This document shows positions 3,125-18,732 of a stretch of DNA of 28,228 nt, piece by piece. Positions within the stretch are counted from its first letter, which is position 1, and every line of letters starts with the position of its first letter. Origin of the DNA: a virus; IMG/VR virus record IMGVR_UViG_3300030101_003781, positions 1-28,228 of that record; one strand, 5' to 3'. Made by a program: the position numbers and the translations under genes. The notes under the pieces were generated by a model that made no database searches, was not told the origin of the DNA, and saw only the letters and a program-made list of their open reading frames with translations.

Positions 3125-4033
3125 ATGGCTATTTCTAGAAGTCAACTCGTTAAAGAGTTAGAGCCAGGTTTGAACGCCCTGTTCGGCTTGGAGTATGGGC
3201 GCTACGACGCTCAACACGCAGAAATCTTTGAGACAGAAACTTCAGATCGTGCATTCGAAGAAGAAGTAATGTTATCAGGATTTGGTAATGCAAGAACGAA
3301 GAGTGAAGGTGGGTCAATTGTTTATGACAATGCGACTGAAACATTCACAGCACGTTACACACATGAAACAATTGCACTAGGCTTTGCAATCACTGAAGAA
3401 GCTGTCGAAGATAATCTTTATGACAGAATCTCAGCAAGATATACAAGAGCACTTGCACGTTCCATGGCAAACACAAAACAGGTGAAAGCTGCAAACATTT
3501 TAAATAATGGTTTTGATAACAACTTCCCTGGTGGTGACGGTGTTGCTCTTCTTTCTGACGCACACCCGCTAGTAGCAGGTACATTAAGAAATGAACTTGC
3601 TGTGGCTGCTGACCTTAATGAAGCATCATTAGAGCAATCTCTAATTGACATTGCTGCATTTGTAGATGAGAGAGGTTTATTAATCTCTACTCAAGGAAGA
3701 AAACTTATTGTTCCTTCTGAGTTACAATTCGTTGCTGACAGATTAACTGAGTCTGCATTCAGACCAGGAACTGCTGACAATGATGTAAACGCATCAAGAA
3801 ACATGGGTATGATTCCTGAGGGATATACAGTAAACAACTACTTAACTGATCCAGATGCATTCTTCATTAAAACCGACATTCCTAACGGATTCAAATTATT
3901 CCAAAGAAGTCCAATTAGAACTTCAATGGAAGGTGATTTCGACACAGGAAATGTAAGATACAAAGCTAGAGAGAGATACTCATTTGGTTTCTCTGATCCT
4001 AGATGTGTATTCGGTTCACCAGGTGCTGCATAA
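3125..4033 (+). CDS. Major capsid protein, Mu gpT-like
   Basis: This 302-residue protein is of the type annotated as Mu-like major head subunit gpT. An N-terminal LEPGLNALFGLEYGRYDAQH is followed by FETETSDRAFEEEVMLSGFG. A central region, YTHETIALGFAITEEAVEDN, leads to the HK97-fold helix where ARYTRALARSMANTKQ introduces NILNNGF and LLSDAHPL. The C-terminal half contains LIVPSELQFVADRLT, a SPIRTSMEGDFDTGN turn and RYSFGFSDPRCVFGSPGAA. It forms the icosahedral shell. It is preceded by GGAGGTTAAACT and followed by a strong hairpin terminator, as expected for a gene needing the highest expression in the operon. Its codon choice and base composition look less AT-rich than the oxygenase genes further along. 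Confidence 0.88.
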   Translation: MAISRSQLVKELEPGLNALFGLEYGRYDAQHAEIFETETSDRAFEEEVMLSGFGNARTKSEGGSIVYDNATETFTARYTHETIALGFAITEEAVEDNLYDRISARYTRALARSMANTKQVKAANILNNGFDNNFPGGDGVALLSDAHPLVAGTLRNELAVAADLNEASLEQSLIDIAAFVDERGLLISTQGRKLIVPSELQFVADRLTESAFRPGTADNDVNASRNMGMIPEGYTVNNYLTDPDAFFIKTDIPNGFKLFQRSPIRTSMEGDFDTGNVRYKARERYSFGFSDPRCVFGSPGAA

Positions 4034-4056
4034 GCATAACCAAAATCAAATCTTTG

Positions 4057-4090
4057 AAAGGGCGTATGTCTTTGACTGCGCCCTTTTTTT
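4057..4090 (+). terminator. Rho-independent terminator after capsid gene
   Basis: AAAGGGCG (4057-4064) can pair with CGCCCTTT (4079-4086) across a 14-nt loop, and the stem runs into seven Ts (4084-4090). It starts 24 nt past the capsid stop codon. It probably ends most head-operon transcripts here, leaving read-through or a new promoter to supply the downstream genes. Confidence 0.85.
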
Positions 4091-4706: not shown

Positions 4707-4979
4707 ATGATAGGTACAAGTTCGGCAAAAGTTACTGCAACGGGTAATGTAACTACACGACCAGCAAGACTTATTGCTATTCATGCTGTTTGCGCAGGAT
4801 CTGCAGGAAGCATAGTGCTTAAAGATTCTAGCACTGGAAGTACCTTATTCGATATTGATACTCCAGGTAGTGCTACCGCAGTTATAGAAACTTACATTGG
4901 TGATGAAGGTATGAGATTTCCAACAAATATTCATGCTACACTCACTAATGTAACATCATTAACCTGCTTCTTTGCATAA
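4707..4979 (+). CDS. Small beta-sandwich-like protein, function unknown
   Basis: This 90-residue protein is made of short hydrophobic strands: ATGNVTTRPARLIAIHAVCA, SIVLKDSSTGSTLFDIDTPG, then ATLTNVTSLTCFFA. It contains two Cys that could pair only outside the cytosol. The layout resembles small phage head or fibre-surface domains that show a scalar property of tens of repeats on the virion, but I do not recognise a named family. It lies 9 nt after the previous gene and its stop overlaps the next start (TAATG), so the three genes form one translational unit. Confidence 0.5.
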   Translation: MIGTSSAKVTATGNVTTRPARLIAIHAVCAGSAGSIVLKDSSTGSTLFDIDTPGSATAVIETYIGDEGMRFPTNIHATLTNVTSLTCFFA

Positions 4980-5260
4980 TGAGAAAACGGGACAAACAAC
5001 CCCCAAAAACTAAAAAATATTTCCGCCCCACTAAGGCAGGGGCGGGAATGACTAAGGCCGGTGTTGCTAAGTATAGACGTGACAACCCTGGTTCTAAATT
5101 AAAAACTGCTGTAACAGGAAAAGTAAAACCTGGTAGTAAAGCAGCGAAAAGAAGAAAATCATTCTGCGCTAGAAGTGCAGGACAAATGAAAAAGTTTCCA
5201 AAAGCAGCAAAAGATCCTAATTCAAGATTAAGACAAGCAAGAAAGAGATGGAGGTGCTAA
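4979..5260 (+). CDS. Small basic phage protein, DUF6321-like
   Basis: This 93-residue protein is about one-third Lys and Arg. The core GMTKAGVAKYRRDNPGSKLK is followed by TAVTGKVKPGSKAAKRRKSF, then CARSAGQMKKFPKAAKDPNS and a terminal RLRQARKRWRC. From memory this matches a domain of unknown function, which I believe is DUF6321, that is widespread in marine phages and some algal viruses; I could not verify this. The strict Cys and terminal Trp-Arg-Cys are part of that pattern. The high positive charge suggests nucleic-acid binding. It is the first of a run of similar small basic proteins. Confidence 0.65.
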   Translation: MRKRDKQPPKTKKYFRPTKAGAGMTKAGVAKYRRDNPGSKLKTAVTGKVKPGSKAAKRRKSFCARSAGQMKKFPKAAKDPNSRLRQARKRWRC

Positions 5261-5620
5261 ATGAAGCTTTCAGAAAATACATCAATCTCAATGCCTATGA
5301 GAAATCTTATTAGTATACTGGGAGCCACAGCAGTGGGTGTCTGGGCTTACTTTGGAGTAATCGAAAGACTAAATAATATAGAAACAAGAGCTACTTTATT
5401 TGAAGCTGATCTTGTTAAGAATGCAGATCAAACTCCTATAGATCAGGAACAGTTTATGCTACTAGAATTTGTATCAGATCAAGTAGAGGGTATGTCAGAA
5501 GATTTAGAAAACATGGCTCATAACAAAGTAAATATTATGAGATTACAAACTGATATGGAAAAAGCACTAAATGACATTGAAGAATTAAAAGATAAAATAA
5601 GGGCAGCAAATGGTTACTAA
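5261..5620 (+). CDS. Membrane-anchored coiled-coil protein, paralogue of the gene at 5956
   Basis: This 119-residue protein has one transmembrane helix (about residues 15-34, LISILGATAVGVWAYFGVI). A long charged coiled coil follows (residues 36-115, including RLNNIETRATLFEADLVKN). The junction ERLNNIETRA closely matches ERLNAVEKKA in the protein encoded at 5956, at the same place relative to the helix. A single anchor with a coiled coil is compatible with a holin accessory, an inner-membrane spanin or an ejection-apparatus component. No lysis enzyme is visible nearby. The ribosome site GGAGGT lies 5 nt before the ATG, inside the end of the upstream gene. Confidence 0.6.
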   Translation: MKLSENTSISMPMRNLISILGATAVGVWAYFGVIERLNNIETRATLFEADLVKNADQTPIDQEQFMLLEFVSDQVEGMSEDLENMAHNKVNIMRLQTDMEKALNDIEELKDKIRAANGY

Positions 5621-5828
5621 AGTTATTATAGCATTATTATTATTTTCTTCACAGGGCACTATGCTTGAACATACTGTTACTGATGGTGTTAAAGATTGTC
5701 TTGAAAAGAAAAGAATTATGGAACGAAATATGTCGGATACAGTTAGAATATCTTGTGCAAAAGTAGAAGCACAAATAGAAACCATAGAGGGTGTCGAATT
5801 TATAAGATCTTTAAGTAAGGTTAAATAA
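5610..5828 (+). CDS. Small exported protein, function unknown
   Basis: This 72-residue protein has a typical short signal peptide: MVTK, then the hydrophobic run VIIALLLFSSQG, with likely cleavage near residues 14-16. The mature part contains two Cys (KDCLEKKRIMERN and VRISCAKVEAQIE) that could form a disulphide in the periplasm. I recall similar small secreted ORFs with a DCLExKRxMER-like core in marine phages. It overlaps the coiled-coil gene by 11 nt. An envelope or lysis-related role is plausible, and a small Rz1-like part cannot be excluded, though no lipobox Cys is present at the cleavage site. Confidence 0.55.
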   Translation: MVTKVIIALLLFSSQGTMLEHTVTDGVKDCLEKKRIMERNMSDTVRISCAKVEAQIETIEGVEFIRSLSKVK

Positions 5829-5902
5829 TGTACTTGGGGTATTTTTATTTACTCTGTGCGTTTATAACTGTAATATTTATGTATTTATCAATACAAACCT
5901 AA
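5828..5902 (+). CDS. 24-residue single-pass membrane miniprotein
   Basis: A tiny ORF whose ATG overlaps the previous stop (TAATG). It encodes an almost entirely hydrophobic peptide (YFYLLCAFITVIFMYL, residues 5-20). Translational coupling and the absence of any other use for this 75-nt stretch argue that it is real. Peptides of this size and type are seen as membrane regulators or holin-like proteins in phages. There is no direct support beyond start context and hydrophobicity. Confidence 0.4.
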   Translation: MYLGYFYLLCAFITVIFMYLSIQT

Positions 5903-5923
5903 TTAGGAGATAGGAGTTATACT

Positions 5924-5971
5924 ATGTGCGATTGTAAAACAGATGAGGACTGTGTATGTCGATTAAGATAG
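5924..5971 (+). CDS. 15-residue Cys-rich microprotein candidate
   Basis: The ORF encodes MCDCKTDEDCVCRLR, with two Cys-x-Cys pairs. Its ATG is preceded by TAGGAGTTATACT, a better ribosome site than the one in front of the gene at 5956, which it overlaps by 16 nt. It may therefore be a metal-binding microprotein, or mainly a leader peptide that couples translation into the next gene. I have a vague recollection of similar CDC-type micro-ORFs in marine phages but cannot verify it. Confidence 0.35.
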   Translation: MCDCKTDEDCVCRLR

Positions 5972-6183
5972 AGATGAAAACGGTCCTGCCTTATGTTGTG
6001 CTTATTGCAACAATAGGCATGACATGGGGTATGTTTACTGAGCGACTAAATGCAGTTGAAAAAAAGGCAGATAGTGTCGCAAAAATGCAACAAGATATTG
6101 CTATTATCAAAGAGAGAATTCTTCAAATGGATGATAAAATTATGTGGATAGAAGAGTTTTTAATTAAGACAGTGGAGTTTTAA
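5956..6183 (+). CDS. Membrane-anchored coiled-coil protein, paralogue of the gene at 5261
   Basis: This 75-residue protein has a transmembrane helix at about residues 9-27 (VLPYVVLIATIGMTWGMF), then ERLNAVEKKADSVAKMQQDI and IIKERILQMDDKIMWIEEF as a coiled coil. It looks like a shortened relative of the protein at 5261: the same N-in single anchor, the same ERLNxxExxA junction and a similar register. The start at 5956 is used here; an in-frame ATG at 5974 would still retain the whole membrane helix. Two such proteins so close together could form a hetero-oligomer in the envelope. Confidence 0.6.
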   Translation: MSIKIEMKTVLPYVVLIATIGMTWGMFTERLNAVEKKADSVAKMQQDIAIIKERILQMDDKIMWIEEFLIKTVEF

Positions 6184-6348
6184 ATGCCCATATCAAGAGG
6201 ACAAATGAGACAGCAGGTATCAAAACCAGGTGCAAAAAAAATTAAAAAAGTTATTAAGGGTTTAAAAAAAGCATCAAAGCTTCACGCAAAACAAGCAAAA
6301 TCTTTAAAAGGAGTTATAGGTGGCCGATCCAAAAAAAGGAACCGGTAA
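6184..6348 (+). CDS. 54-residue Lys-rich basic protein
   Basis: The start codon directly follows the preceding stop. The product opens with MPISRGQMRQQVSKPG and continues as a Lys-rich helix (KKIKKVIKGLKKASKLHAKQ), ending GGRSKKRNR. MPISR-type N-termini recur in tiny basic marine phage proteins, from memory. The charge distribution suggests nucleic-acid binding. The last 29 nt overlap the start of the next gene. It is too short to place in a family. Confidence 0.5.
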   Translation: MPISRGQMRQQVSKPGAKKIKKVIKGLKKASKLHAKQAKSLKGVIGGRSKKRNR

Positions 6349-6616
6349 GAAGCCGAAGGGCTCTGGTAGGAGATTATATACAGATGAAAATCCTAAAGAT
6401 ACTGTCGGTATTAAGTTTGCTACACCATCGGATGCGAGAAAAACGGTTGCAAAAGTTAAAAAAATTAAAAAACCATTTGCTAGGAAAATTCAAATCCTCA
6501 CAGTCGGAGAGCAACGAGCAAAAGTAATGGGTAAGACAGAAGTTGCTAATATATTTAAAAAAGGTAAAGTAAGTATAAGGAGAAGTAGAAATGGGAAAAC
6601 TATGTCCAAGAGGTAA
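6320..6616 (+). CDS. Small basic phage protein with RRLYTDENPKDTV motif
   Basis: This 98-residue protein probably starts at GTG, 6 nt after AAGGAG. Residues 15-33 read GSGRRLYTDENPKDTVGIK, followed by FATPSDARKTVAKVKKIKKP and a basic tail. I recall the LYTDENPKDTV motif from short proteins of marine phages and large algal viruses, possibly the DUF5872 group; this is unverified. Net charge is strongly positive. It overlaps both neighbours (29 nt and 26 nt), so coding density is extreme here. Function is unknown, and DNA-associated virion protein is my inference. Confidence 0.6.
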   Translation: MADPKKGTGKKPKGSGRRLYTDENPKDTVGIKFATPSDARKTVAKVKKIKKPFARKIQILTVGEQRAKVMGKTEVANIFKKGKVSIRRSRNGKTMSKR

Positions 6617-6869
6617 AGCAGCAGCAAAAGCTCGATTTAAAGTATATCCTAGCGCATACGCAAATATGTATGCTAGTGCTGTATGTAGTGGAAAAATAAC
6701 ACCTGGTGGTAAAAAAAATAAAGGCAAGAAAAAAGCCATGGGTGGCACTATTTCTCAAGATAGAAAAGCCGTATCTTTCAAAAGAATGGCTAAAGGTGGA
6801 TCAATTGTTGCAGCAGGTTGTGGCATGGTTGATTCAGGTAGACGCAAAAAAACCAAACTCTACGTCTAA
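6591..6869 (+). CDS. Small basic protein with CPRGKAAAKxxF...YPSAYANMYAS motif
   Basis: This 92-residue protein opens with LCPRGKAAAKARFKVYPSAY, followed by ANMYASAVCSGKITPGGKK. The motif is common in marine phage and nucleo-cytoplasmic large DNA virus (NCLDV) small proteins, where it can be fused to the LYTDENPKDTV motif found in the preceding gene. The two overlapping genes may therefore be the split halves of one functional unit. The C-terminal half is Lys/Gly-rich with GGTISQDRKAVSF and MAKGGSIVAAGCGM. Three Cys could bind metal. The ATG is preceded by AAGGAGAAGTAGAA. Confidence 0.6.
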   Translation: MGKLCPRGKAAAKARFKVYPSAYANMYASAVCSGKITPGGKKNKGKKKAMGGTISQDRKAVSFKRMAKGGSIVAAGCGMVDSGRRKKTKLYV

Positions 6870-6880
6870 GGAGGTAAATC

Positions 6881-6988
6881 ATGAATAAGTTATGGAGCAA
6901 GTGGAATAACTTAAATAAAAAGGGTAAAGCAATTGCTGCCGTTTTTGTTGTAGTTGTTTTATGGGCCATTTATAATCAAATCTGGTAA
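6881..6988 (+). CDS. 35-residue single-pass membrane miniprotein
   Basis: The ORF is preceded by an excellent ribosome site (TAAGGAGGT, ending 5 nt before the ATG), and its stop overlaps the next start (TAATG). The product has a basic amphipathic N-terminus (MNKLWSKWNNLNKKGK), then a membrane helix at residues 17-32 (AIAAVFVVVVLWAIYN). The topology is probably N-in. The strong start signal makes this the best supported of the tiny membrane ORFs. It could be a holin-like or envelope-modulating peptide; no family is recognised. Confidence 0.6.
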   Translation: MNKLWSKWNNLNKKGKAIAAVFVVVVLWAIYNQIW

Positions 6989-7263
6989 TGGCAAAAAAGG
7001 GTTTACGTGCTTGGGTTAAAGAGAATTGGGTTGACATAGCCAACAAAAGATCTGATGGATCTTATCCTAAATGTGGTAGAAGCGGTGGAGAAAAAAGAAA
7101 AAACTATCCTAAGTGCGTACCCATAGCAAAAGCAAGAGCTATGTCAAAAGGTCAAAAAGCAAGCGCTGTTCGGCGTAAACAACAAGCTGGTAATCCTGGT
7201 GGTAAACCCACTATGGTCAAAACAATTGTCAAGAAAAAAACTCGCAGAAAAAATAAAAGATGA
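6988..7263 (+). CDS. Small basic protein with GLRAWVKENWVDI motif
   Basis: This 91-residue Lys/Arg-rich protein has residues 5-22 reading GLRAWVKENWVDIANKRS, then CGRSGGEKRKNYPKCVPIAK and MSKGQKASAVRRKQQAGNPG. I know this W-V-D-I...KYPKCVP...AKA...SAVRRK layout from many marine cyanophage and pelagiphage hypothetical proteins, and similar short proteins occur in algal viruses. Two conserved Cys are present. A function has not been established as far as I know. It belongs to the basic small-protein run and is followed by an overlapping gene in another frame. Confidence 0.65.
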   Translation: MAKKGLRAWVKENWVDIANKRSDGSYPKCGRSGGEKRKNYPKCVPIAKARAMSKGQKASAVRRKQQAGNPGGKPTMVKTIVKKKTRRKNKR

Positions 7264-7810
7264 TGTAATTAATTGGTCTAAGAATGTCTTAGAACCAATG
7301 AATAAACACCTAGGTTATCCTGCATGCCCTTTTGCTGCAAAGTGGAGAAAAGATGGCAAGCTTAGAATAGAAGTTAGATCTGACAAATCAAAATATGAAA
7401 AACACCTAACGACATTACTCAAAGATTGGAACAAAAAGAAACATGATATAATTATCTTTTGTGATCCTTTTTGGGAACAATACACACCTGAACAATTTCA
7501 AGATAAAATAGATTTTTACAATAAGACTTATAATAGACGAGATGTTTATTTCATGGGTTTTCATCCTAGTAATCCAGCATCAGTTGAAGAACAAGAGTTT
7601 TTAGTAGAGCCTACGGATGACTGCGAGTATGAGACTGACTTAGCTTATTCTATGATGTTAATACAGAAATTTAAACAGCTATATGAAGCAAGTTGCAAAC
7701 TACATAAGATAGGTTATTATGAAAAATGGCCAGCCGAGTATTACGATGAGGTCGTAAAAACAAGGCAAGACGAATATGAACGTATATTTAAAAAGGAGCG
7801 TACATCATGA
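7199..7810 (+). CDS. Conserved hypothetical protein with CPFA motif
   Basis: This 203-residue protein differs from its neighbours in being globular, aromatic and acidic. Key segments are LEPMNKHLGYPACPFAAKW, HDIIIFCDPFWEQYTPEQF, DVYFMGFHPSNPASVEEQ and the acidic PTDDCEYETDLAYSMMLIQK. I recall similar bacterial and phage proteins with a PVCPFA...GFHP layout, but no described function. The GTG at 7199 overlaps the preceding gene by 65 nt; a TTG at 7226 or a later codon could be the true start, because no good ribosome site is seen. It is the only non-basic protein in this small-gene run. Confidence 0.55.
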   Translation: MVNPLWSKQLSRKKLAEKIKDDVINWSKNVLEPMNKHLGYPACPFAAKWRKDGKLRIEVRSDKSKYEKHLTTLLKDWNKKKHDIIIFCDPFWEQYTPEQFQDKIDFYNKTYNRRDVYFMGFHPSNPASVEEQEFLVEPTDDCEYETDLAYSMMLIQKFKQLYEASCKLHKIGYYEKWPAEYYDEVVKTRQDEYERIFKKERTS

Positions 7811-8037
7811 TGAAAAAGAAAAATGTCGTTGGAATGAAAAAAGGCGGCAAAGCTAAAAAAAAGAGCGTGGTCAAGAAACGTGGCGGCGGTGCTATGAAAA
7901 AGAAGAACGTTGTTAAGAAGCGTGGCGGTGGCGGTATGAAAAAGAAAAATGTCGTTAAGAAACGTGGCGGCGGTATGATGCAGAAAATGCGTGGCGGCGG
8001 AGCTGCAAACCCACATAAATCAAGAAGAGGTATGTAA
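7807..8037 (+). CDS. Lys/Gly repeat protein, probable nucleic-acid condensing
   Basis: This 76-residue protein is built of near-identical units: AKKKSVVKKRGGGA (16-29), MKKKNVVKKRGGGG (30-43) and MKKKNVVKKRGGG (44-56), with degraded copies at both ends. Lys, Arg, Gly and Met make up most of it. Such K-rich blocks separated by flexible glycines resemble histone-tail or protamine-like peptides, so DNA binding is the natural guess. AAGGAG lies 8 nt before the ATG at 7807, and the previous stop overlaps it (ATGA). Synonymous differences between units indicate an older duplication rather than an assembly artefact. Confidence 0.6.
   Translation: MMKKKNVVGMKKGGKAKKKSVVKKRGGGAMKKKNVVKKRGGGGMKKKNVVKKRGGGMMQKMRGGGAANPHKSRRGM
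7852..7974 (+). repeat. Three tandem ~42-nt coding repeats
   Basis: Units occupy 7852-7893, 7894-7935 and 7936-7974. Each encodes (M/A)KKK(N/S)VVKKRGGG. They differ mostly at third codon positions, such as AAG against AAA and GTT against GTC, so the protein repeat is conserved better than the DNA. The third unit is one codon shorter. Confidence 0.85.
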
Positions 8038-8714
8038 TGGCTACCTCGGGAACTACTACTTTCAATCTTAGTTTTGATAGAATTATTGAACGAGCGTATG
8101 CACGTTGTGGTAAGTCTTTAAGAACTGGATATGAATTACAAGCAGCAAGAGATAATCTTAACTTGCTTTTTTCAGAGTGGGGTAACCGAGGTATACATTT
8201 ATGGAAAGTAAAAAATCATACACAAAATTTAACTGCAAGCACAACTACATATACTGCACCGAGTGATGCATCTGATGTTTTAGAATTAGTTTTTAGAAAA
8301 ATAGATGGTAGCGAAACTACTGACACAAGCATGACTAAAATATCAAGATCAGAATATGAAAATATACCTAATAAGTTTTCAACAGGAACACCTAGTCAGT
8401 ATTACGTAAGAAGAAATTTATCTAATGTAGAAATAAATTTATATCAAACACCAGATACCACTGATACACAGATAAATTATTTTTATGTTGGTCGTATACA
8501 AGATGTTGGAGAATACACGAATGATCCTGATGCACCGTTTAGATTTTTACCATGCACTGTATCAGGACTTGCATATTATCTAGGTCAAGAAGTTGCACCA
8601 GAAAGATCACAAGAATTAGAAAGAAGATATGAAGCAGAATTACAAAGAGCGTTGACTGAAGACAGTCAATCAACCTCTGTAAATATTGTGCCTCGTAGTT
8701 TCTATGTAGGGTAA
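8037..8714 (+). CDS. Head-tail adaptor, P22 gp4-like (putative)
   Basis: This 225-residue protein has an N-terminal FDRIIERAYARCGKSLRTGY leading into an ELQAARDNLNLLFSEWGNRG helix, then IHLWKVKNHTQNLTASTTTY. Further on are SRSEYENIPNKF, TGTPSQYYVRR, a strand-rich TQINYFYVGRIQDVGEYT and the helical C-terminus PERSQELERRYEAELQRAL. I associate this architecture with the adaptor that docks on the portal in P22-like and many marine podoviruses. Its position as first of the neck genes agrees. ATG overlaps the previous stop (TAATG). The adaptor call is by recalled similarity and context, not by search. Confidence 0.65.
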   Translation: MATSGTTTFNLSFDRIIERAYARCGKSLRTGYELQAARDNLNLLFSEWGNRGIHLWKVKNHTQNLTASTTTYTAPSDASDVLELVFRKIDGSETTDTSMTKISRSEYENIPNKFSTGTPSQYYVRRNLSNVEINLYQTPDTTDTQINYFYVGRIQDVGEYTNDPDAPFRFLPCTVSGLAYYLGQEVAPERSQELERRYEAELQRALTEDSQSTSVNIVPRSFYVG

Positions 8715-10323: not shown

Positions 10324-11307
10324 ATGGCAGATGCTTGGGGTGAAGGTACATGGGGGCAAGGCTTTTGGGGCCAACAAAGTTCGGTCACAGTATCAGTTAC
10401 TGGGTTATCGACAACAGCAGCGCTTGGCACAGAGTCAGTTGTTGCTGATAGTTTAGTTACATTAGACTCACTTCAATCTACTTTTACTTTAGGCACAGCA
10501 GCAGCAGAACAAGAATCTGTCTTTGATTTAACAGGTGTAACATCTCAATTTAATTTAGGCACTGTAAGTGTTGAAGAAGGAGCAGGAGTTACTCTTGATA
10601 GTCTATCCACATCATTTGCTGTAGGCACTGAAAGTGCATCAGGAACAGTTGATGCGGGTTGGGGAAGATCCACATGGGGGTCTTTTGCTTGGAATGAAAA
10701 CATAACACAAGAAGTCAGCGTCACGGGAGTGACTATGGCTACGACTCTAGGTACCACAACTCAAGAAGTTGGAACTGGTGTTATAGTTTCAGTTACCGGT
10801 CTTGAGATGACAGGTGCATTGGGCACCACATCACAAACAGGAACAGCCGTAGAAACTCTTGATAGTCTTTCAGTAGGTGTTGCTCTCTCAGGAGCGACGG
10901 TATCAGGTGAGGGTAGTGTTGCTGTTATAGCACCCTCTGATCAATTAGATTTTGCTATTGGAACTCCTGTAATAGATATTTTCACACAGGTAGATCCAAC
11001 CGCAGTTACAATGACTGCAACTCTTGGAACTGCTGTAGCAGAGGCAGATGCTTTAGTCACTCTTGATAGTTTATCTTCATCATTTGCTACAGGAACAGAA
11101 ACAGTTGAAGTGGGAACTGGTGTAATTGTAAGTGTTTCAACAGTTGCAATGAGTTTTGCTACAGGCACGGAAACAGTTGAAGGTAGTGCTTTAGTAAACG
11201 TCACAGGACTTGACTTAACCATAGTCACAGGTAATCCTTTCTCTACACCGTGGGCGAATGTAGTTACAGGAGCAAGTAATACTTGGACAGAGGTAAATGC
11301 TGCGTGA
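10324..11307 (+). CDS. Repetitive beta-strand virion protein with W-G-rich N-terminus
   Basis: This 327-residue protein is Thr/Val/Ser/Gly-rich. The opening WGEGTWGQGFWG (residues 5-16) and a second WGRSTWGSFAWNEN (113-126) bracket repeats of about 20-40 residues, with the shared pattern TLDSL..(S/T)F..GT (TLDSL at 47, 90, 178 and 247) alternating with VTG(L/V)xMxxxLGT. Such strand-turn repeats suggest an extended beta fibre or spike stalk. VGTGVIVSV occurs twice. It is followed by the oxygenase-like gene at 11304 with a GTGA overlap, so one fibre-type protein and a presumed modification enzyme are translationally coupled. A structural role is inferred from composition and context. Confidence 0.6.
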   Translation: MADAWGEGTWGQGFWGQQSSVTVSVTGLSTTAALGTESVVADSLVTLDSLQSTFTLGTAAAEQESVFDLTGVTSQFNLGTVSVEEGAGVTLDSLSTSFAVGTESASGTVDAGWGRSTWGSFAWNENITQEVSVTGVTMATTLGTTTQEVGTGVIVSVTGLEMTGALGTTSQTGTAVETLDSLSVGVALSGATVSGEGSVAVIAPSDQLDFAIGTPVIDIFTQVDPTAVTMTATLGTAVAEADALVTLDSLSSSFATGTETVEVGTGVIVSVSTVAMSFATGTETVEGSALVNVTGLDLTIVTGNPFSTPWANVVTGASNTWTEVNAA

Positions 11308-11762
11308 CATTTAAGGTAATAGATAATTTTCTTTCAGATAAAAATTTTGAAAAAATACAGAATACAGTATTATCGAACAAATTTGTTTGGTTTTATTCTG
11401 ATTGTGTGAGTAAACAAAACGATGGTGATTTTCAATTTTCCACTATGTTAGATACTGAAAACGATGAAATAGTAAAATTGTTTAAAGAAAAAATACAAAT
11501 AGAAAAGGTGATTAGAGTTAAAATAAATCAAACTCATAGAACAAAAAATCTTTTAATTCATAAACCACATGTTGATCAACATTTTGACAGTAAAGCTATG
11601 GTTCTTTATTTGAATACAAACAACGGATACACTTATTTTGATGACCAAAAAGTGTCCTCAAAAGCCAATAGGGCGATTCTTTTTGATGCTACTGCCTTAC
11701 ACGGAGGAACTACTTGCACAGATCAAAAGAGAAGAGTAGTATTGAATATGAATTATATTTAA
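11304..11762 (+). CDS. 2OG-Fe(II) oxygenase-like protein A (H-x-D type)
   Basis: This 152-residue protein has the prolyl-hydroxylase-type fold signature. HVD at residues 89-91 supplies the first two iron ligands, H133 (ATALHGGT) the distal one, and R144 (KRRVVLNMN) the likely 2-oxoglutarate carboxylate anchor. LYLNTNNGYTYFDD lies between them. I chose GTG 11304 because it gives a GTGA overlap with the upstream stop and an N-terminus TFKVIDNFL matching the paralogue at 22422; a TTG at 11283 is also in frame. It is short for the family (usually about 180-220), so it is probably a minimal catalytic core. Substrate unknown. Proteins A and J are the closest pair among the ten. Confidence 0.7.
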   Translation: MTFKVIDNFLSDKNFEKIQNTVLSNKFVWFYSDCVSKQNDGDFQFSTMLDTENDEIVKLFKEKIQIEKVIRVKINQTHRTKNLLIHKPHVDQHFDSKAMVLYLNTNNGYTYFDDQKVSSKANRAILFDATALHGGTTCTDQKRRVVLNMNYI

Positions 11763-11764
11763 TG

Positions 11765-11792
11765 TTGAATTTTAGATGTAAAAAGATATATT
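11765..11792 (+). promoter_or_regulatory. Candidate sigma70-like promoter before tail fibre
   Basis: TTGAAT (11765-11770) and TATATT (11787-11792) are spaced by 16 nt within a 46-nt gap ahead of the fibre gene at 11809. The match is fair, but such pairs arise by chance in AT-rich DNA. Confidence 0.3.
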
Positions 11793-11808
11793 TTTAAGAG
11801 GTTTAAAC

Positions 11809-12912
11809 ATGGCAAGTACATATTCAGATAGACTCAAATTAGAACTCATGGCCACTGGCGCTAATGCCAATACATGGGGTACTAATACCAATAATAATTT
11901 AGAAGTAGTAGATGCTTTTGCAGCAGGATATTTATCAAAATCAGTTGCAGGTTCAGCAAATATTACACTTTCAACAGCTAATGCCTCCGATACAGCAGAA
12001 TCATCAAATAAAGTAATTGAACTTACAGGTGCTTTAACAGGGGATATTGTTGTCTTTATTCCTGCTGTTGAAAATAATTATACTTTTTTTAACAACACTA
12101 CAGGTTCACAAACTTTAACAATCGCAGCAACAGGACATACAGCTAATGGTACTTTGATTACACAAGGCGCACATACCACTGTTTATTGTGATGGCTCATC
12201 AGATTTTAATGTAGAAATTGCAAGTTCAACAGACGCTGCTGCTTTAAACAAAGGAACCTTACCAGATGCAAGATTTCCTGCGACATTGCCCGCAGCTTCT
12301 GGCGCTAACTTAACAAGTTTAAACGCATCAAACTTAGGATCAGGAACTGTTCCTAATGCTCGTTTAGATGCACAACTTCAAGATGTAGCAGGATTAGCTG
12401 TTACTGATGGTGGTATTATTGTCGGTGATGGTGGTAATTTTGTTTTAGAAACAGGAGCTACTGCAAGAACAAGTTTAGGTTTAGGAACATCATCTGATGT
12501 TCAATTTAATGATATGCAAGTAGACTCACTTGGTGTCGCTACTGCAGCATCAGGAACAAGTGGTGAGATTAGAGCCACAAACGACATTACTGCTTTTTTT
12601 TCATCTGATGTCGCATTAAAAGAAAATATTCACAACATATCTTCACCTATGGAAAAAGTACAAAATCTTAATGGTGTGCTTTTTGATTGGAAACAAGAAT
12701 TTATTGACGCCAAAGGTGGGGAAGATGGTTATTTTGTTCGTAAAACAGACGTAGGTGTTATAGCTCAAGATGTTGAAAAAGTTTTACCAGAGGTCGTAGG
12801 CACAAGACCTGACGGAGTTAAAGCCGTTAAATATGATCGTTTATGTGCTTTATTAATCGAATGTGTAAAGGATTTACAAACTCAGGTCAATGATCTTAAG
12901 AAGGGAGAATAA
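11809..12912 (+). CDS. Tail fibre with C-terminal S74 intramolecular chaperone
   Basis: This 367-residue protein opens with TYSDRLKLELMATGANANTW, a common N-terminal fibre-attachment module in marine phages, followed by beta-rich shaft segments (residues 40-260). The C-terminus is the peptidase S74 / endosialidase chaperone domain. It starts at SDVALKENIHNI, where S266 and K271 have the Ser-x4-Lys spacing of the autocleavage dyad. It continues through GVIAQDVEKVLPEVV and ends in a coiled coil (IECVKDLQTQVNDLKKG). Known family members trimerise the fibre and then cleave themselves off. The cut would fall just before S266, leaving a mature fibre of about 265 residues. AAGAGG precedes the ATG. 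Confidence 0.85.
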   Translation: MASTYSDRLKLELMATGANANTWGTNTNNNLEVVDAFAAGYLSKSVAGSANITLSTANASDTAESSNKVIELTGALTGDIVVFIPAVENNYTFFNNTTGSQTLTIAATGHTANGTLITQGAHTTVYCDGSSDFNVEIASSTDAAALNKGTLPDARFPATLPAASGANLTSLNASNLGSGTVPNARLDAQLQDVAGLAVTDGGIIVGDGGNFVLETGATARTSLGLGTSSDVQFNDMQVDSLGVATAASGTSGEIRATNDITAFFSSDVALKENIHNISSPMEKVQNLNGVLFDWKQEFIDAKGGEDGYFVRKTDVGVIAQDVEKVLPEVVGTRPDGVKAVKYDRLCALLIECVKDLQTQVNDLKKGE

Positions 12913-12915
12913 GTT

Positions 12916-13860
12916 ATGCCAACACCTTCAGGTCAAATAGGTCTTTCAGACGTAAACGCAGAATTAGGAAACTCTCCCACAGCTCAAATAAATATGGACT
13001 CTGCGCCTGTAAGAGGATTAGCAGAAGTTCCTAGTGGAGCCATATCCATGTCTGACTTGCAAAATAAGTCTAATGTAAAATTTATTGTTGCTTCAGGTGG
13101 CTCAGAAAGCACTGATGGAGATTTTAAAATTCATACTTTTAATAGTAGTGGTACATTCACCGTAAATGATGCAGGTAACTCAGGAGGATCTGACACCGTT
13201 GACTTCTTAGTAATTGCAGGTGGTGGAGGTGGTGGTCGTGAACCAGATTCAAGAGCAGGTGGTGGAGGTGCAGGTGGTTTTAGACTTGACTATCCAAATC
13301 CCGCTACTGGAGGTTTACCAGTATCAACAGGTGGAATACCTGTCACCATTGGTGGTGGAGGTGGACCCAACAGTCCTGGCAGTTCATCAAATTTTTCTAC
13401 AATAACTTCATCTGGGGGTGGTAGCCAAGGAAGACCAGGCGGATCTGGTGGTGGACAACACACCTTTCAATCTGGTGGAACAGGTAATGCAGGGGGATTT
13501 TCACCTCCTGAGGGAAGACCAGGTGGAACTTTCTCTAACCAAGCAGGTGCAGGTGGTGGTGGAGCAGGCAGTAATGGTCAAAATGGATCAGGTAACACCG
13601 CAGGTGGTGGAGGTTCAGGATCACCTACCAATATAGATGGCACTTTCTCAAGTAGAGCAGGTGGCGGTGGAGGCTCTGGTGGAGGTTCCGAAGGTCCCGC
13701 TAATGATGGTGGTGGAGCAGGTGGTCGTCAAACAGGTGGACCTCGAGCAGGAAGACCAGGTACAGCTAATACCGGTGGCGGAGGTGGAGCAGGACCCTCT
13801 ACTCGAGCTAATGGCACAGGTGGAAGTGGTAAAGTAATTATTAGGTACAAGTTTCAGTAA
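12916..13860 (+). CDS. Glycine-rich tail fibre / adhesin
   Basis: This 314-residue protein has an N-terminal GQIGLSDVNAELG module, as seen in marine phage fibres, and a short strand region (FKIHTFNSSGTFTVNDAG, TVDFLVIAGGGGGG). A glycine-rich region (101-305) with many GGGG runs follows, and a final strand, GTGGSGKVIIRYKFQ. Such regions can form a polyglycine-II helix sandwich, as in the S16 gp38 adhesin tip. RPG occurs at 173-175, 201-203 and 280-282, and SPG at 153-155; these are XPG sites of the type hydroxylated by prolyl 4-hydroxylases in collagen. It probably forms the host-recognition tip. It is encoded immediately before the oxygenase island. Confidence 0.8.
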   Translation: MPTPSGQIGLSDVNAELGNSPTAQINMDSAPVRGLAEVPSGAISMSDLQNKSNVKFIVASGGSESTDGDFKIHTFNSSGTFTVNDAGNSGGSDTVDFLVIAGGGGGGREPDSRAGGGGAGGFRLDYPNPATGGLPVSTGGIPVTIGGGGGPNSPGSSSNFSTITSSGGGSQGRPGGSGGGQHTFQSGGTGNAGGFSPPEGRPGGTFSNQAGAGGGGAGSNGQNGSGNTAGGGGSGSPTNIDGTFSSRAGGGGGSGGGSEGPANDGGGAGGRQTGGPRAGRPGTANTGGGGGAGPSTRANGTGGSGKVIIRYKFQ

Positions 13861-14342
13861 TGGCACATTTTGCAAAATTAAGTGATGAAAATTTAGTTCT
13901 ACACGTAGAAGTTGTGGATAACTCAGTTTTAGAAGATGAAAATGGTAATGAGCAAGAGTCTTTAGGAATCGCATATTTAAATTCAATACACGGATGGCCT
14001 CATTGGAAAAAAACCTCTTATAATACAATTAAAGGAAAACATTATGAAGCCGATCATCAAACAGAATCTTCAGATCAATCAAAAGCTTTTAGGAAAAACT
14101 TTGCCTCTATTGGTGGAAAATATGATTCTACAAAAGATGCATTTATACCTGAGCAACCTTTTAATTCTTGGATTCTTGATGAGACTACATGCACATGGAT
14201 TCCTCCTATTACTGAGCCAATTACGGAAGAAGAAACAAAAAGAATTTATTGGAATGAGTCAAATCAAAGTTGGGACGCAGAAGACGTTGATGGAACAATT
14301 TTGAGATGGAGCACAGAAACATCTTCATGGAGTGCTGTTTAA
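13860..14342 (+). CDS. Conserved fibre-module protein (MAHFAKL family)
   Basis: This 160-residue protein starts AHFAKLSDENLVLHVEVVDN and includes ENGNEQESLGIAYLNSIHGW, WKKTSYNTIK and FRKNFASIGGKYDSTKDAFI. It also has PFNSWILDETTCTWIPP and a final YWNESNQSWD. I know this pattern from many marine phages, including cyanophages, where the protein is found near tail fibres. Its biochemical role is not established to my knowledge; a fibre-associated structural protein is the usual annotation. It starts by TAATG overlap with the glycine-rich fibre, supporting joint use. Eight nt separate it from the oxygenase island. Confidence 0.65.
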   Translation: MAHFAKLSDENLVLHVEVVDNSVLEDENGNEQESLGIAYLNSIHGWPHWKKTSYNTIKGKHYEADHQTESSDQSKAFRKNFASIGGKYDSTKDAFIPEQPFNSWILDETTCTWIPPITEPITEEETKRIYWNESNQSWDAEDVDGTILRWSTETSSWSAV

Positions 14343-14350
14343 CTTTCTAG

Positions 14351-14911
14351 ATGAAAGATAAAGTAGTCCTATCAGAATCTTTTTACATTAAAGGTTTTAT
14401 TTCTAAGTCACTTGATTTAGATAAATTCTATATAAAAAATAATGTCATAAAGAATTATGCTTATGATTCACAACTTACAAAAGATAAATTATACCCCTCT
14501 AAAGATTATGTTAATTTAAGCCAAGATGAAAATGTATTAAGACTAAATCAATATTTTGTTGACTTTTACAAGTTATATCACAAAGAAAATATCGAGATAA
14601 TGCACAACTACGGTATTTTTTTAAATCAAAATCAATCAATAAATTTACATAATCACATTAATGATTACGACCTTACTAACAGTCCAGAGATTTCTGTATT
14701 GTATGTAGTTGATTGCAATGATGATTCTTTAAATGTTGAATTTCAATTTCATAAAAGACTTACAAGAAATTCAAAAAAAATGGTTACTCTAAAACAAAAT
14801 GATTACCTTGTATTTAATTCAAATTTACAACATGGCATATTAGCTAATAAAAATAATAAACCAATTTTACTTTTATCTTTTCAATTTAGAGTGAGATCTG
14901 ATCAAATATAA
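14351..14911 (+). CDS. 2OG-Fe(II) oxygenase-like protein B (H-x-H type)
   Basis: This 186-residue protein is markedly AT-rich in codon use. It has a cupin / double-stranded beta-helix arrangement, with LHNHINDYD giving H100 and H102 (with D105 near) as metal ligands. Strands VLYVVDCNDDSLNVEFQF follow, then NDYLVFNSNLQHG with distal H161, and K170 at the usual 2-oxoglutarate-anchoring position before ILLLSFQF. The H-x-H start differs from the canonical H-x-D. It is the first gene of a six-member oxygenase block. Similarity is only at motif level, so catalytic activity is less certain than for protein C. A cupin-type binding protein is the alternative. Confidence 0.5.
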   Translation: MKDKVVLSESFYIKGFISKSLDLDKFYIKNNVIKNYAYDSQLTKDKLYPSKDYVNLSQDENVLRLNQYFVDFYKLYHKENIEIMHNYGIFLNQNQSINLHNHINDYDLTNSPEISVLYVVDCNDDSLNVEFQFHKRLTRNSKKMVTLKQNDYLVFNSNLQHGILANKNNKPILLLSFQFRVRSDQI

Positions 14912-15514
14912 ATGACCTTAGATAATTACTGGTATTACTTTCAAGATGCATTACCAAGTCGTTTTTGTGATGACATTATTGCTTTTGGTAATGAGCAAGT
15001 TGCTCAAACAGCAAGTGTTGAGGGCTTTCAAGGTAATGTAGATAATCAAAACGATGTATCAAAACTTTATAAAACAAGAAACTCTTCAATAGTTTGGATG
15101 AATGAATTATGGATATGGAGAGAAATAGAGCCTTATCTAAGAGAAGCTAATAAAGCGGCAGGTTGGAATTATGATATTGTCTCTCCTGAAAGTTTTCAAT
15201 TTACAAAGTACACAGAAAATCAACATTATAGTTGGCATCAAGATGCTTTTAATAAACCTGACAAAGAAGGATTAATACGTAAAATTTCTTTAACTCTTTC
15301 ATTAGAAGACGGTGACAAATATGAAGGTGGAGACTTTGAATTTGATTTAAGAAATGACAGTGAAAGTAAACCTGTCATGATGAAATGTGCAGAGGCTAGA
15401 AAAAAAGGTACATTAATATTCTTTCCCTCTTATGTTTGGCACAGAGTTACCCCTGTAACATCAGGAATAAGATATTCTTTAGTTATATGGAACAGAGGTT
15501 TACCTTATAGATAG
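14912..15514 (+). CDS. 2OG-Fe(II) oxygenase C, prolyl-hydroxylase-like
   Basis: This is the most canonical member of the set at 200 residues. YSWHQDA gives H109 and D111, with KISLTLSLEDGD and YEGGDFEFDL as the intervening strands. GTLIFFPSYVWHRVTPVTSG gives distal H177 and R187 for 2-oxoglutarate. It has the typical PKHD-hydroxylase (PiuC-like) spacing, and its length matches the catalytic domain. The reaction is oxidative decarboxylation of 2-oxoglutarate coupled to substrate hydroxylation, with the substrate unknown here. Its ATG abuts the preceding stop and it is followed 9 nt later by another oxygenase. This is the best candidate for a protein hydroxylase. Confidence 0.85.
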   Translation: MTLDNYWYYFQDALPSRFCDDIIAFGNEQVAQTASVEGFQGNVDNQNDVSKLYKTRNSSIVWMNELWIWREIEPYLREANKAAGWNYDIVSPESFQFTKYTENQHYSWHQDAFNKPDKEGLIRKISLTLSLEDGDKYEGGDFEFDLRNDSESKPVMMKCAEARKKGTLIFFPSYVWHRVTPVTSGIRYSLVIWNRGLPYR

Positions 15515-15522
15515 GAGAAGTA

Positions 15523-16170
15523 ATGAAAAAACAATCAACAGGTAATCATTTTCAAGATAATCATTATGTAGTTATAAGAGAGGCAATCAGTTCTGATTTA
15601 GCTAGTTTTGTTTATAATTACTTTCAAAATAAACGTGCAGTAGCACAAAAGCTTTTTGAGGAAAAATACATTTCTCCTTATGAGCAGTCGTGGGGACATT
15701 GGAATGATCGACAAGTGCCTGGGACTTATTCTCATTATGCTGATGTAGCAATGGAAACTTTACTCCTACGTGTCATGCCTGTTATGTCGTACATTACAGA
15801 ATTAGAGTTAGTTCCGTGTTATTCCTATGCTAGAATATATAAATATGGTGATGTCTTACACAGACATAAAGATAGACCTGAATGTGAAATCTCAACTACT
15901 ATAAATTTGGGTGGAGATAATTGGCCTATATATTTAGATCCTTCTCAAGGAGAAGGCAAAGAGGGTATTAAGGTAGATTTAAATCCTGGTGACATGTTAG
16001 TTTACAAAGGTGAAAAACTAGAACATTGGAGAGAGCCTTTTCAAGGATATGATTGTGGTCAAGTTTTTTTACACTACAATGACAAAAAAGGACCTTTTCA
16101 AGAAAAAAATAAATTTGATCATCGACCTATATTAGGATTACCAAGTGATTTAAAAAAATTTAATGCTTAA
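15523..16170 (+). CDS. 2OG-Fe(II) oxygenase-like protein D (H-x-D, no visible Arg)
   Basis: This 215-residue protein has YARIYKYGDVLHRHKDRPEC followed by EISTTINLGG. H115 and D117 are the ligand pair, and H168 (EKLEHWREPF) the distal ligand. GQVFLHYN follows, where an Arg or Lys would normally bind 2-oxoglutarate; here the equivalent positions are Cys-Gly, so the co-substrate contact must come from elsewhere. Similar proteins (HRHxDRxxCE...LHY) are frequent in cyanophages and other marine viruses, from memory, annotated as 2OG-Fe(II) oxygenases. The gene has a GGAGAAG site and overlaps the following oxygenase by 8 nt. Confidence 0.7.
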   Translation: MKKQSTGNHFQDNHYVVIREAISSDLASFVYNYFQNKRAVAQKLFEEKYISPYEQSWGHWNDRQVPGTYSHYADVAMETLLLRVMPVMSYITELELVPCYSYARIYKYGDVLHRHKDRPECEISTTINLGGDNWPIYLDPSQGEGKEGIKVDLNPGDMLVYKGEKLEHWREPFQGYDCGQVFLHYNDKKGPFQEKNKFDHRPILGLPSDLKKFNA

Positions 16171-16753
16171 AGAAGAATTATTTGACATAAAGAGTTTTAT
16201 TGGTGGATGGTACATAGACAAATTATTATGTGATGCACTTATCGATTTTCATGAAGCAAATAAAGATAAAGTTGTGCAAGGCACTGTTGGAAAAACAATC
16301 GTAGACAAGAGCACTAAAGACAGTCTAGATCTTCGTTGTCGTCCAAACGGACATCCCGTGATAAAAGAATATCAACAACAATTACAAAAATGCCTTGATT
16401 TATATTTAGAAAGATATGAGTCAGCTAACAATGTTAATTATTTTGCTGTTCATGAAAATATTGCAATACAAAAATATAAGATTAATGGTGGATTTAAAAA
16501 ATGGCATTGTGAAAATCAAGGTTATTCTGGAAACATTCAAAGATATTTAGTTTTTATGACATATTTAAATGATGTTAAAAACGGAGGCACAGAATTTAAA
16601 TATCAAAAAATTAAAACTGAAGCAGTGAAAGGACTTACGCTCATTTGGCCAGCTTTTTTTACACATACTCATAGGGGCGTAATATCAAACGAAGATGAAA
16701 AATACATCATTACGGGATGGTTCAGTTTTAATGAAGGAGAACAAAATGATTAA
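16163..16753 (+). CDS. 2OG-Fe(II) oxygenase E (H-x-E type)
   Basis: This 196-residue protein contains AIQKYKINGGFKKWHCENQG, where H115 and E117 are the ligands (Glu replaces Asp, seen in part of the superfamily). The gene also encodes RYLVFMTYLNDVKNGGTEF, and IWPAFFTHTHRGVISNEDEK gives distal H170 (or H168) and K180 before YIITGWFSF. This layout, HxE/D...NGGTEF...P..F.H.HRG...KYIxTGW, is typical of the phytanoyl / prolyl hydroxylase-like oxygenases in marine phages. It overlaps its upstream neighbour by 8 nt and the glycosyltransferase gene by 8 nt, which ties these enzymes into one translational unit. Confidence 0.8.
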   Translation: MLKEELFDIKSFIGGWYIDKLLCDALIDFHEANKDKVVQGTVGKTIVDKSTKDSLDLRCRPNGHPVIKEYQQQLQKCLDLYLERYESANNVNYFAVHENIAIQKYKINGGFKKWHCENQGYSGNIQRYLVFMTYLNDVKNGGTEFKYQKIKTEAVKGLTLIWPAFFTHTHRGVISNEDEKYIITGWFSFNEGEQND

Positions 16754-17549
16754 GCCGGAAGAATTAAAAGATAAAAATTTTAAAATATTTTTAGGAATGC
16801 CCATGTATGGTGGCATGGTCTCAGAAGCGACAGTTCATGGATTACTAGAATTACAACAATGGAGTATGGCAAAAAAGGTTGGACTACGATTTCAATCCAT
16901 GGGTAATGAAAGTTTAATAACTAGAGCTCGTAATACAATTGTTTCCATGATGATGGATCAAACTGATTTTGTAGCAACGCATTTATTATTTATTGATGCT
17001 GATATTGGTTTTCAGTGGCAAAATATTGAAAGATTATTATGTGCAGACAAAGACATAGTTTGTGGTATTTACCCTAGAAAACATATCTATTTAGAAAAAG
17101 TAAAAAAGATATTAGAAGAAAATCCTAATGCAACTCCTGACGAAATAGAGGCAAAAGCTTTAGGTTATAATGTTAACTTTGACAATCCAGAATTAATAAA
17201 AGGAGAGAACGGTTTTTTTAAAGTTAATGAAGCAGCTACAGGTATGATGCTAGTTAAAAGAGAAGTGTTTCGCACGATGATGAAAAAATTTCCAGAGCGT
17301 AAGTATGAGTCTGATCAAATTGTAAATGGAGGGTATTACAGATCTGATAATTGTTATGACTTATTTGCTGTTGGTCCTTATCAGACATTAGATAAAAAAA
17401 GATATTTGTCTGAAGATTACTACTTCTCAAGACTATGGACTGAAGAGTGTGGTGGAGAGATATGGGCAGATTTATCCATGCCTTTAACACATTTTGGTAA
17501 CAGAGCATTTAAAGGTCACGTTGGGACTTTAGTGGCGGAAAAAAAATAA
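16746..17549 (+). CDS. Glycosyltransferase-like protein (GT-A fold)
   Basis: This 267-residue protein resembles GT-A (family 2 / Anp1-like) nucleotide-sugar transferases. LGMPMYGGMVSEATVHGLLE is the N-terminal nucleotide-binding strand. SLITRARNTIVSMMM is followed by HLLFIDADIGFQW with a DxD motif at 84-86 for the metal and sugar nucleotide. A later CGIYPRKHI and the acidic LSEDYYFSRLW (222-224, probable catalytic region), then MPLTHFGNRAF. I use the ATG at 16746 with AGGAG upstream; an in-frame start at 16695 would overlap the previous gene by 59 nt. The enzyme sits between six oxygenase-like genes, so it may glycosylate hydroxylated residues or sugars. Confidence 0.75.
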   Translation: MIKPEELKDKNFKIFLGMPMYGGMVSEATVHGLLELQQWSMAKKVGLRFQSMGNESLITRARNTIVSMMMDQTDFVATHLLFIDADIGFQWQNIERLLCADKDIVCGIYPRKHIYLEKVKKILEENPNATPDEIEAKALGYNVNFDNPELIKGENGFFKVNEAATGMMLVKREVFRTMMKKFPERKYESDQIVNGGYYRSDNCYDLFAVGPYQTLDKKRYLSEDYYFSRLWTEECGGEIWADLSMPLTHFGNRAFKGHVGTLVAEKK

Positions 17550-18713: not shown

Positions 18714-18732
18714 TTAGAATATATTATGCCCT

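What the first reader, a model, noticed from the sequence alone, without database searches (positions are those of the whole stretch)
4979..8037. Run of six small Lys/Arg-rich proteins between capsid and connector genes
Seen: basic proteins at 4979, 6184, 6320, 6591, 6988 and 7807, from 54 to 98 residues, several with motifs shared by small basic proteins of phages and algal viruses. Inference: histone- or protamine-like proteins packaged with DNA or assisting assembly; alternatively RNA-binding or host-takeover peptides.
Basis: partly seen in the sequence, partly recalled or inferred. Interest (0 to 1): 0.6.

Follow-up and report, generated by a model that had tools for sequence, protein, structure and literature searches.

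The report
Small basic head proteins of pelagiphages
Six tiny, strongly positively charged proteins encoded beside the capsid gene of an ocean phage are real, conserved genes; at least three of them match parts of larger proteins found in purified particles of cyanophages, so they are most likely carried inside the virus head with the DNA.

Summary
Observation confirmed. Six basic ORFs (pI 10.6-12.0, 54-98 aa, summed net charge +147) lie between the capsid gene (3125-4033) and an SU10-type adaptor (8037-8714) of a phage related to Pelagibacter phage HTVC023P. They are the window's only such genes, and five neutral or acidic genes interrupt the run. All six are under purifying selection. The 4979 ORF is DUF6321; the 6988 ORF belongs to a family whose members match DUF5872.

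The main new result: homologues of the 4979, 6320, 6591 and 6988 proteins occur fused, in varying combinations, as modules of single 330-720-aa proteins in T4-like phages, often next to terminase genes. Two such proteins come from mass-spectrometry virion lists: S-SCSM1_29 (three modules) and S-CREM2 gp137 (DUF6321). Some DUF6321 proteins or their neighbours begin with a T4-type capsid-targeting sequence, and module boundaries are enriched in hydrophobic-x-E, resembling prohead-protease sites.

Best reading: small internal head (virion) proteins that associate with packaged DNA. This phage encodes them as separate genes; T4-like phages encode them as a probable prohead-processed polyprotein. 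"Protamine" is too strong: the DUF6321 model is a compact helical fold. Virion presence in this phage, expression timing and DNA binding are untested.

The parts
4979..5260 (+). B1: DUF6321 protein, 93 aa, net +30, two invariant Cys, C-terminal ..RWRC
   Evidence: PF19846 E=1.2e-12; >550 phage records carry the domain; dN/dS 0.06; AF2 pLDDT 89
6184..6348 (+). B2: 54-aa Lys-rich protein (KGLKKASKLHAKQAK motif)
   Evidence: dN/dS 0.24; HTVC027P gp51 is a homologue lying between B5 and B1 homologues; fused C-terminal to B4 in L051, L312, L331, L144
6320..6616 (+). B3: 98-aa basic protein, GTG start
   Evidence: dN/dS 0.08; homologous module in fused T4-like proteins L442, L443, L448, E about 1e-29; no Pfam or PHROG family
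6591..6869 (+). B4: 92-aa basic protein (YPSAYAN motif)
   Evidence: phrog_27331 E=2.6e-24; dN/dS 0.26; module of Syn9 gp114 and S-SCSM1_29
6988..7263 (+). B5: 91-aa basic protein (CGRS..YPKC motif), DUF5872-related family
   Evidence: phrog_23735 E=2.4e-28; 16 of 48 homologues hit DUF5872; dN/dS 0.12; module of S-SCSM1_29, E=6e-8
7807..8037 (+). B6: 76-aa K/G/R-rich protein made of a 42-bp tandem repeat
   Evidence: 2.9 copies of 42 bp; close homologues in viral contigs; dN/dS 0.07; shorter positional counterparts just before the adaptor in L151 and DSL-LC04
5261..5620 (+). 119-aa acidic protein, probable N-terminal membrane anchor plus coiled coil, interleaved in the cassette
   Evidence: phrog_20984 E=3e-36, unknown function; homologue near B1 in HTVC010P and HTVC203P
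5956..6183 (+). 75-aa probable membrane plus coiled-coil protein, interleaved
   Evidence: sequence; dN/dS 0.15
3125..4033 (+). major capsid protein (upstream landmark)
   Evidence: PF25209 E=1.3e-14; 74% identical to HTVC023P capsid
8037..8714 (+). SU10-type portal adaptor (downstream landmark)
   Evidence: PF24175 E=2e-12

Best explanation
The six ORFs encode small internal head (virion-associated) proteins. They are made with the capsid genes, enter the prohead or bind the DNA as it is packaged, neutralise part of its charge through Lys/Arg-rich modules, and may leave with the DNA into the host, as T4 internal proteins do. B1 (DUF6321), B3, B4 and B5 are interchangeable modules. HTVC023P-type podoviruses encode them as separate, often end-to-end genes. 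T4-like phages, mainly cyanophages, encode them as one multi-module protein that probably enters the prohead and is cut at hydrophobic-x-E sites by the prohead protease. Shown: gene reality, selection, homology, fusion, gene neighbourhood, published detection of T4-like homologues in purified particles, motif enrichment. Inferred: location inside the head of this phage, DNA binding, late timing, cleavage, injection.
For: (1) Purifying selection on all six. (2) Fusion: B3+B5+B1 in L442 and L443; B5+B4+B1 in L453, L439, L444, Syn9 gp114 and S-SCSM1_29. (3) Published virion proteomics of CsCl-purified particles: S-CREM2 gp137, C-terminal DUF6321, 4 unique peptides, and its basic neighbour gp136, 8 peptides; S-SCSM1_29 carries the 'virion protein' tag used in that record for proteins the paper names as detected by mass spectrometry. 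(4) Head or packaging neighbourhood in unrelated phages: capsid|DUF6321|gp11, scaffold|DUF6321|capsid, beside terminase genes. (5) Capsid-targeting-like N-termini: S-SZBM1_192 (DUF6321) MKTFKQYITEA versus T4 IPII/IPIII MKTYQEFIAEA; among 5,382 background ORFs of >= 100 aa only 12 begin with this pattern, and these come from loci that hold DUF6321 genes, nearly all directly beside them. (6) Hydrophobic-x-E before modules in 47-100% of cases versus 10-12% background, specific to E; T4 gp21 cuts after L/I-X-E. (7) In unbiased loci B1 is as conserved as the capsid protein (77% versus 75%), other head genes far less. (8) T4 internal proteins are small, mostly basic and packed with the DNA.
Against: No proteome of a HTVC023P-type virion was available. 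Virion evidence comes from T4-like homologues in which the modules are parts of a larger protein; coverage of gp137 is 4.1%, and the S-CREM2 authors warn that some abundant phage proteins may simply co-purify. S-SZBM1_192, with both a targeting-like N-terminus and DUF6321, is absent from that phage's 30-protein virion list. The window proteins lack a T4-type targeting sequence. Some related phages lack DUF6321 altogether (CRP-902, HTVC106P), so it is not universally essential. DNA binding is untested. B2 and B6 have only weak or local comparative support.
Confidence: 0.6

Rival explanations
1. Prohead assembly or packaging factors: they act with scaffold, portal or terminase during assembly and are mostly lost from the mature particle.
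For: Neighbours are scaffold, portal, terminase and capsid genes. The T4-like fused genes lie between small and large terminase. T4 core proteins are cut by gp21 and largely expelled.
Against: Fused homologues are listed from mature purified particles, although coverage is low and one T4-like list lacks its DUF6321 protein, so loss cannot be excluded.
Confidence: 0.2
2. Host-takeover peptides made early that bind host RNA, ribosomes or chromosome.
For: Basic peptides can bind RNA. In HTVC027P the early genes are all of unknown function and temporal clusters are mosaic. A HicA-type toxin domain is fused to DUF6321 in L472.
Against: Contigs keep the modules on one strand in compact runs (261 of 261) within or at the end of the virion-gene block. 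In HTVC022P the DUF6321 gene gp32 lies between scaffold and capsid, and the paper states that genes of each temporal class are adjacent in that phage. Fused homologues are listed from virions.
Confidence: 0.12
3. Lysis-associated proteins (for example holin or endolysin partners), because similar genes flank peptidase M15 and small membrane proteins in other pelagiphages.
For: M15 peptidase is close to the cassette in HTVC023P, HTVC203P and HTVC106P. Probable membrane/coiled-coil ORFs are interleaved in the window.
Against: The basic proteins themselves show no hydrophobic membrane segment. In T4-like and T7-like phages the DUF6321 gene is beside terminase or capsid genes, not lysis genes. Fused homologues are listed as virion proteins.
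Confidence: 0.06

Closest known systems
DUF6321 (PF19846) proteins of cyanophages and pelagiphages
   Same: The 4979 ORF is a member: same invariant residues, same C-terminal Trp-x-Cys ending
   Different: Stand-alone and inside a multi-gene basic cassette, whereas in T4-like phages it is often the C-terminal module of a large protein
DUF5872 (PF19197)
   Same: A third of the sampled homologues of the 6988 ORF match it (16 of 48)
   Different: The window protein itself does not reach even E=1
T4 internal head proteins IPI, IPII, IPIII
   Same: Small Lys-rich proteins in head context; cyanophage DUF6321 protein S-SZBM1_192 has a very similar targeting-type N-terminus
   Different: No sequence homology claimed; the window proteins have no targeting sequence and are far more basic (pI 10.6-12.0 versus 8.9-9.5)
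Multi-module proteins near the terminase genes of T4-like cyanophages (Syn9 gp114, S-SCSM1_29, S-CREM2 gp137; phrog_727 and related)
   Same: Syn9 gp114 and S-SCSM1_29 contain homologues of B1, B4 and B5 in one chain, relatives in contigs also B3; gp137 has B1
   Different: The window phage has the modules as separate genes
Pelagibacter phage HTVC027P gp49-gp52
   Same: B4, B5, B2 and B1 homologues in four end-to-end genes
   Different: Placed between portal-side genes and GroES rather than between capsid and adaptor

Membership tests
DUF6321 (PF19846) | Profile match above the curated cut-off | tested here: met
   4979 ORF: 48.7 bits versus cut-off 28.5
DUF6321 (PF19846) | Invariant core: S-x-C-x-R-x-x-G and C-terminal W-x-C | tested here: met
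   Invariant S61, C63, R65, G68, W91, C93 in 51 sequences
DUF5872 (PF19197) | Profile match by the 6988 ORF or its family | tested here: inconclusive
   Window protein no match at E<1; 16 of 48 homologues match, best E 1.6e-14
T4 internal head proteins | N-terminal capsid-targeting sequence (MKTYQEFIAE type) | tested here: not met
   Window N-termini MRKRDKQ, MPISRGQ, MADPKKG, MGKLCPR, MAKKGLR, MMKKKNV versus T4; met only for some T4-like relatives
T4 internal head proteins | Present in the mature head with the DNA | not testable with these tools
   Only T4-like homologues have published virion detection
T4 internal head proteins | Cleavage by prohead protease | not testable with these tools
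   Candidate sites enriched in T4-like fused relatives only
Histone, HU or protamine families | Profile match | tested here: not met
   No such family for any of the six at E<=1 in Pfam or PHROGs
Protamine-like disordered proteins | No stable fold | tested here: not met
   For 4979 only: mean pLDDT 89, four helices; B5 is less certain (72); not tested for B2, B3, B4, B6

The most novel reading that the evidence does not exclude
A widespread, previously undescribed system of modular internal head proteins: the same small basic cysteine-containing modules are single genes in pelagiphages and a prohead-protease-processed polyprotein in T4-like cyanophages, associate with the packaged genome, and can carry cargo (for example a HicA-type toxin domain) into the host.
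Probability: 0.35. Interest if true: 0.78.

Novelty: new variant of a known kind. Interest (0 to 1): 0.57.

Why it matters
DUF6321 genes occur in more than 550 phage records, mostly cyanophages and pelagiphages, yet have no function, and no paper in the library mentions the domain. [quoted passage not shown] Showing that stand-alone basic proteins and a T4-like virion polyprotein share the same modules gives a first concrete, testable role for several unknown families, links unrelated phage lineages through an internal head component, and predicts cleavage products and cargo proteins to look for in existing proteomic data.

Tried and rejected
Fold comparison: the DUF6321 model matched no solved structure (best E 9.5) and essentially only other DUF6321 proteins in the viral library; the B5 model (pLDDT 72) gave nothing meaningful. 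Sequence search against solved structures with both families: none. Literature search for DUF6321: no paper. Published HTVC027P time-course RNA-seq exists, but gene-by-gene clusters are only in a supplement that could not be read. Recent horizontal transfer as the main cause of high B1 identity was rejected: synonymous sites are near saturation (median pS 0.67) while dN/dS is 0.06. The first comparison of B1 with capsid identity was biased by selecting loci on B1; in capsid-selected loci B1 (77%) only equals the capsid (75%). Most DUF6321 proteins lack a capsid-targeting start (found in 2 of 122 ORFs of 110 aa or more), so targeting of those by that route is not claimed. The sigma-70 scan of the region gave no more promoter-like sites than shuffles.
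Full report
WHAT IS THERE. The window is a 28,228-base virus record. Its capsid protein is 74% identical to that of Pelagibacter phage HTVC023P and matches Phage_capsid_4; the gene at 8037 encodes an SU10-type adaptor. Between them lie the six basic ORFs of the finding, at the stated coordinates and lengths, with pI 10.6-12.0 and net charges +19 to +30. They are the only genes of 47 in the window with pI above 10 and K+R of at least 24%; the chance of six such genes falling within 11 consecutive genes is about 9e-4, and none of 49 spurious ORFs qualifies. The run is not unbroken: acidic or neutral ORFs at 5261, 5610, 5956, 6881 and about 7226-7810 are interleaved. I call the basic ORFs B1 (4979), B2 (6184), B3 (6320), B4 (6591), B5 (6988) and B6 (7807).

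ARE THEY GENES. Against relatives fetched from viral contigs, median dN/dS is 0.06 (B1), 0.24 (B2), 0.08 (B3), 0.26 (B4), 0.12 (B5) and 0.07 (B6), compared with 0.08 for the capsid protein and 0.16 for the adaptor. In loci selected by the capsid protein, so without bias towards B1, B1 has median identity 77%, the capsid 75%, the 1096 gene (scaffold position) 40% and the adaptor 43%. The modules are on one strand whenever two or more occur (261 of 261 contig pieces), with a median span of 1.3 kb for three or more, and B4 and B5 are usually end to end. The cassette occupies either the capsid-adaptor interval or the portal-GroES interval; in 35-kb pelagiphages it lies near peptidase M15 at one end of the virion-gene block.

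FAMILIES. B1 is DUF6321, an otherwise undescribed domain present in more than 550 phage records. B4 matches phrog_27331 and B5 phrog_23735; B2, B3 and B6 match no family. B6 is built from a 42-bp tandem repeat.

THE KEY RESULT: FUSIONS. Profiles made from the stand-alone proteins find the same modules fused in T4-like contigs: B3, B5 and B1 in one chain (L442, L443), and B5, B4 and B1 in another (L453, L439, L444). DUF6321 is C-terminal in 283 of 286 cases. In L442 the fused gene lies between small and large terminase, as in S-B68 and S-CREM2; in Syn9 it follows the small terminase. Syn9 gp114 and S-SCSM1_29 each contain B5, B4 and B1. B2 is fused to B4 in four contigs. Five of the six window proteins are therefore linked by fusion; B6 is linked only by position.

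VIRION EVIDENCE. S-CREM2 gp137, with DUF6321 at its C-terminus, was detected in CsCl-purified particles with 4 unique peptides (4.1% coverage), and its basic neighbour gp136 with 8 (24.1%) (PMC10665884). S-SCSM1_29 is labelled 'virion protein' in its record. [quoted passage not shown] I infer that the label means detection. Against this, S-SZBM1_192, a 165-aa DUF6321 protein, is not in that phage's list of 30. The S-CREM2 authors also warn that some abundant proteins may merely co-purify.

TARGETING AND CLEAVAGE. T4 IPII and IPIII begin MKTYQEFIAEA (read from the T4 record); the first ten residues of IPIII are what is required for entry into the head, and gp21 cuts after L/I-X-E (PMC9026906). 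S-SZBM1_192 begins MKTFKQYITEA. Among 5,382 other ORFs of at least 100 aa only 12 begin with such a pattern; they come from loci holding DUF6321 genes, nearly all directly beside them. In 25 fused proteins remaining after 60% identity clustering, a hydrophobic-x-E occurs within 8 residues before module starts in 47% (B5), 67% (B1), 100% (a Cys-Trp module) and 100% (an R-I-P module), against 10-12% in random windows; hydrophobic-x-D, -K or -S show no such general enrichment. This is what a polyprotein cut inside the prohead would look like; it is not proof of cleavage. Only 2 of 122 DUF6321 ORFs of at least 110 aa carry their own targeting-like start.

STRUCTURE. AlphaFold2 gives B1 a confident compact helical fold (mean pLDDT 89, helices 26-35, 54-72, 74-78, 83-91) with no match among solved structures. 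B5 is less certain (72). B1 and B5 each carry two invariant cysteines. B1 is thus not a disordered protamine.

MECHANISM. I think most likely that these are internal head proteins: small positive modules that enter or line the prohead, bind DNA during packaging and perhaps leave with it, in the manner of T4 internal proteins, whose lysines contact DNA phosphates. Virion association of the family in T4-like phages is supported by published data; location inside the head, DNA binding, timing and injection for this phage are inferred. I put virion association of the set at about 0.7, and DNA charge neutralisation as a main role at about 0.45.

The 'packaged with DNA or assisting assembly' inference gains real, indirect support; 'histone- or protamine-like' is not established; the proposed refutation (absence from virions with early transcription) remains the right test, and part of it may already lie in the published HTVC027P RNA-seq supplement.

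Noticed in passing
L472:3620-4246: A 208-aa protein of a phage contig joins a capsid-targeting-like start (MKTFKAFISE), a HicA toxin domain (PF07927, E 1e-12), a Cys-Trp module and a C-terminal DUF6321, with hydrophobic-x-E at the joints: possibly a toxin domain carried in the head.
   Followed up: partly
L565:17253-19376 (S-SZBM1_194): A 707-aa Lys-rich protein beside the DUF6321 gene contains an internal sequence FITYREFIAEG closely resembling the T4 capsid-targeting sequence.
   Followed up: no
L448:2264-4219: A DUF192 domain (PF02643, E 5e-26) is embedded in the multi-module DUF6321 protein.
   Followed up: no
window 5261-5620, 5956-6183, 6881-6988: Three small probable membrane or coiled-coil proteins are interleaved with the basic genes; homologues of the first also lie in the block with peptidase M15 in HTVC010P and HTVC203P, suggesting a lysis function.
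   Followed up: partly
window 11283-22913: Six 2OG-Fe(II) oxygenase genes above the Pfam cut-off (14912, 16163, 17549, 18162, 21396, 21932) and one just below (11283) sit among tail genes.
   Followed up: partly
window 4056-4090: Strong terminator-like hairpin with a U-tract directly after the capsid gene (-18.6 kcal/mol, z -5.5), so the cassette may be read by read-through or from its own promoter.
   Followed up: partly
L001-L007 and viral contigs: The basic cassette switches between the capsid-adaptor and portal-GroES positions with shuffled gene order, and is missing between cement and adaptor in Roseobacter phage CRP-902.
   Followed up: partly
L168:8587-8838 (Pag-Yong1) and L006 (DSL-LC04): A small K/G-rich basic protein stands directly before the adaptor gene even in distant relatives, like B6; sequence similarity was not examined.
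   Followed up: no
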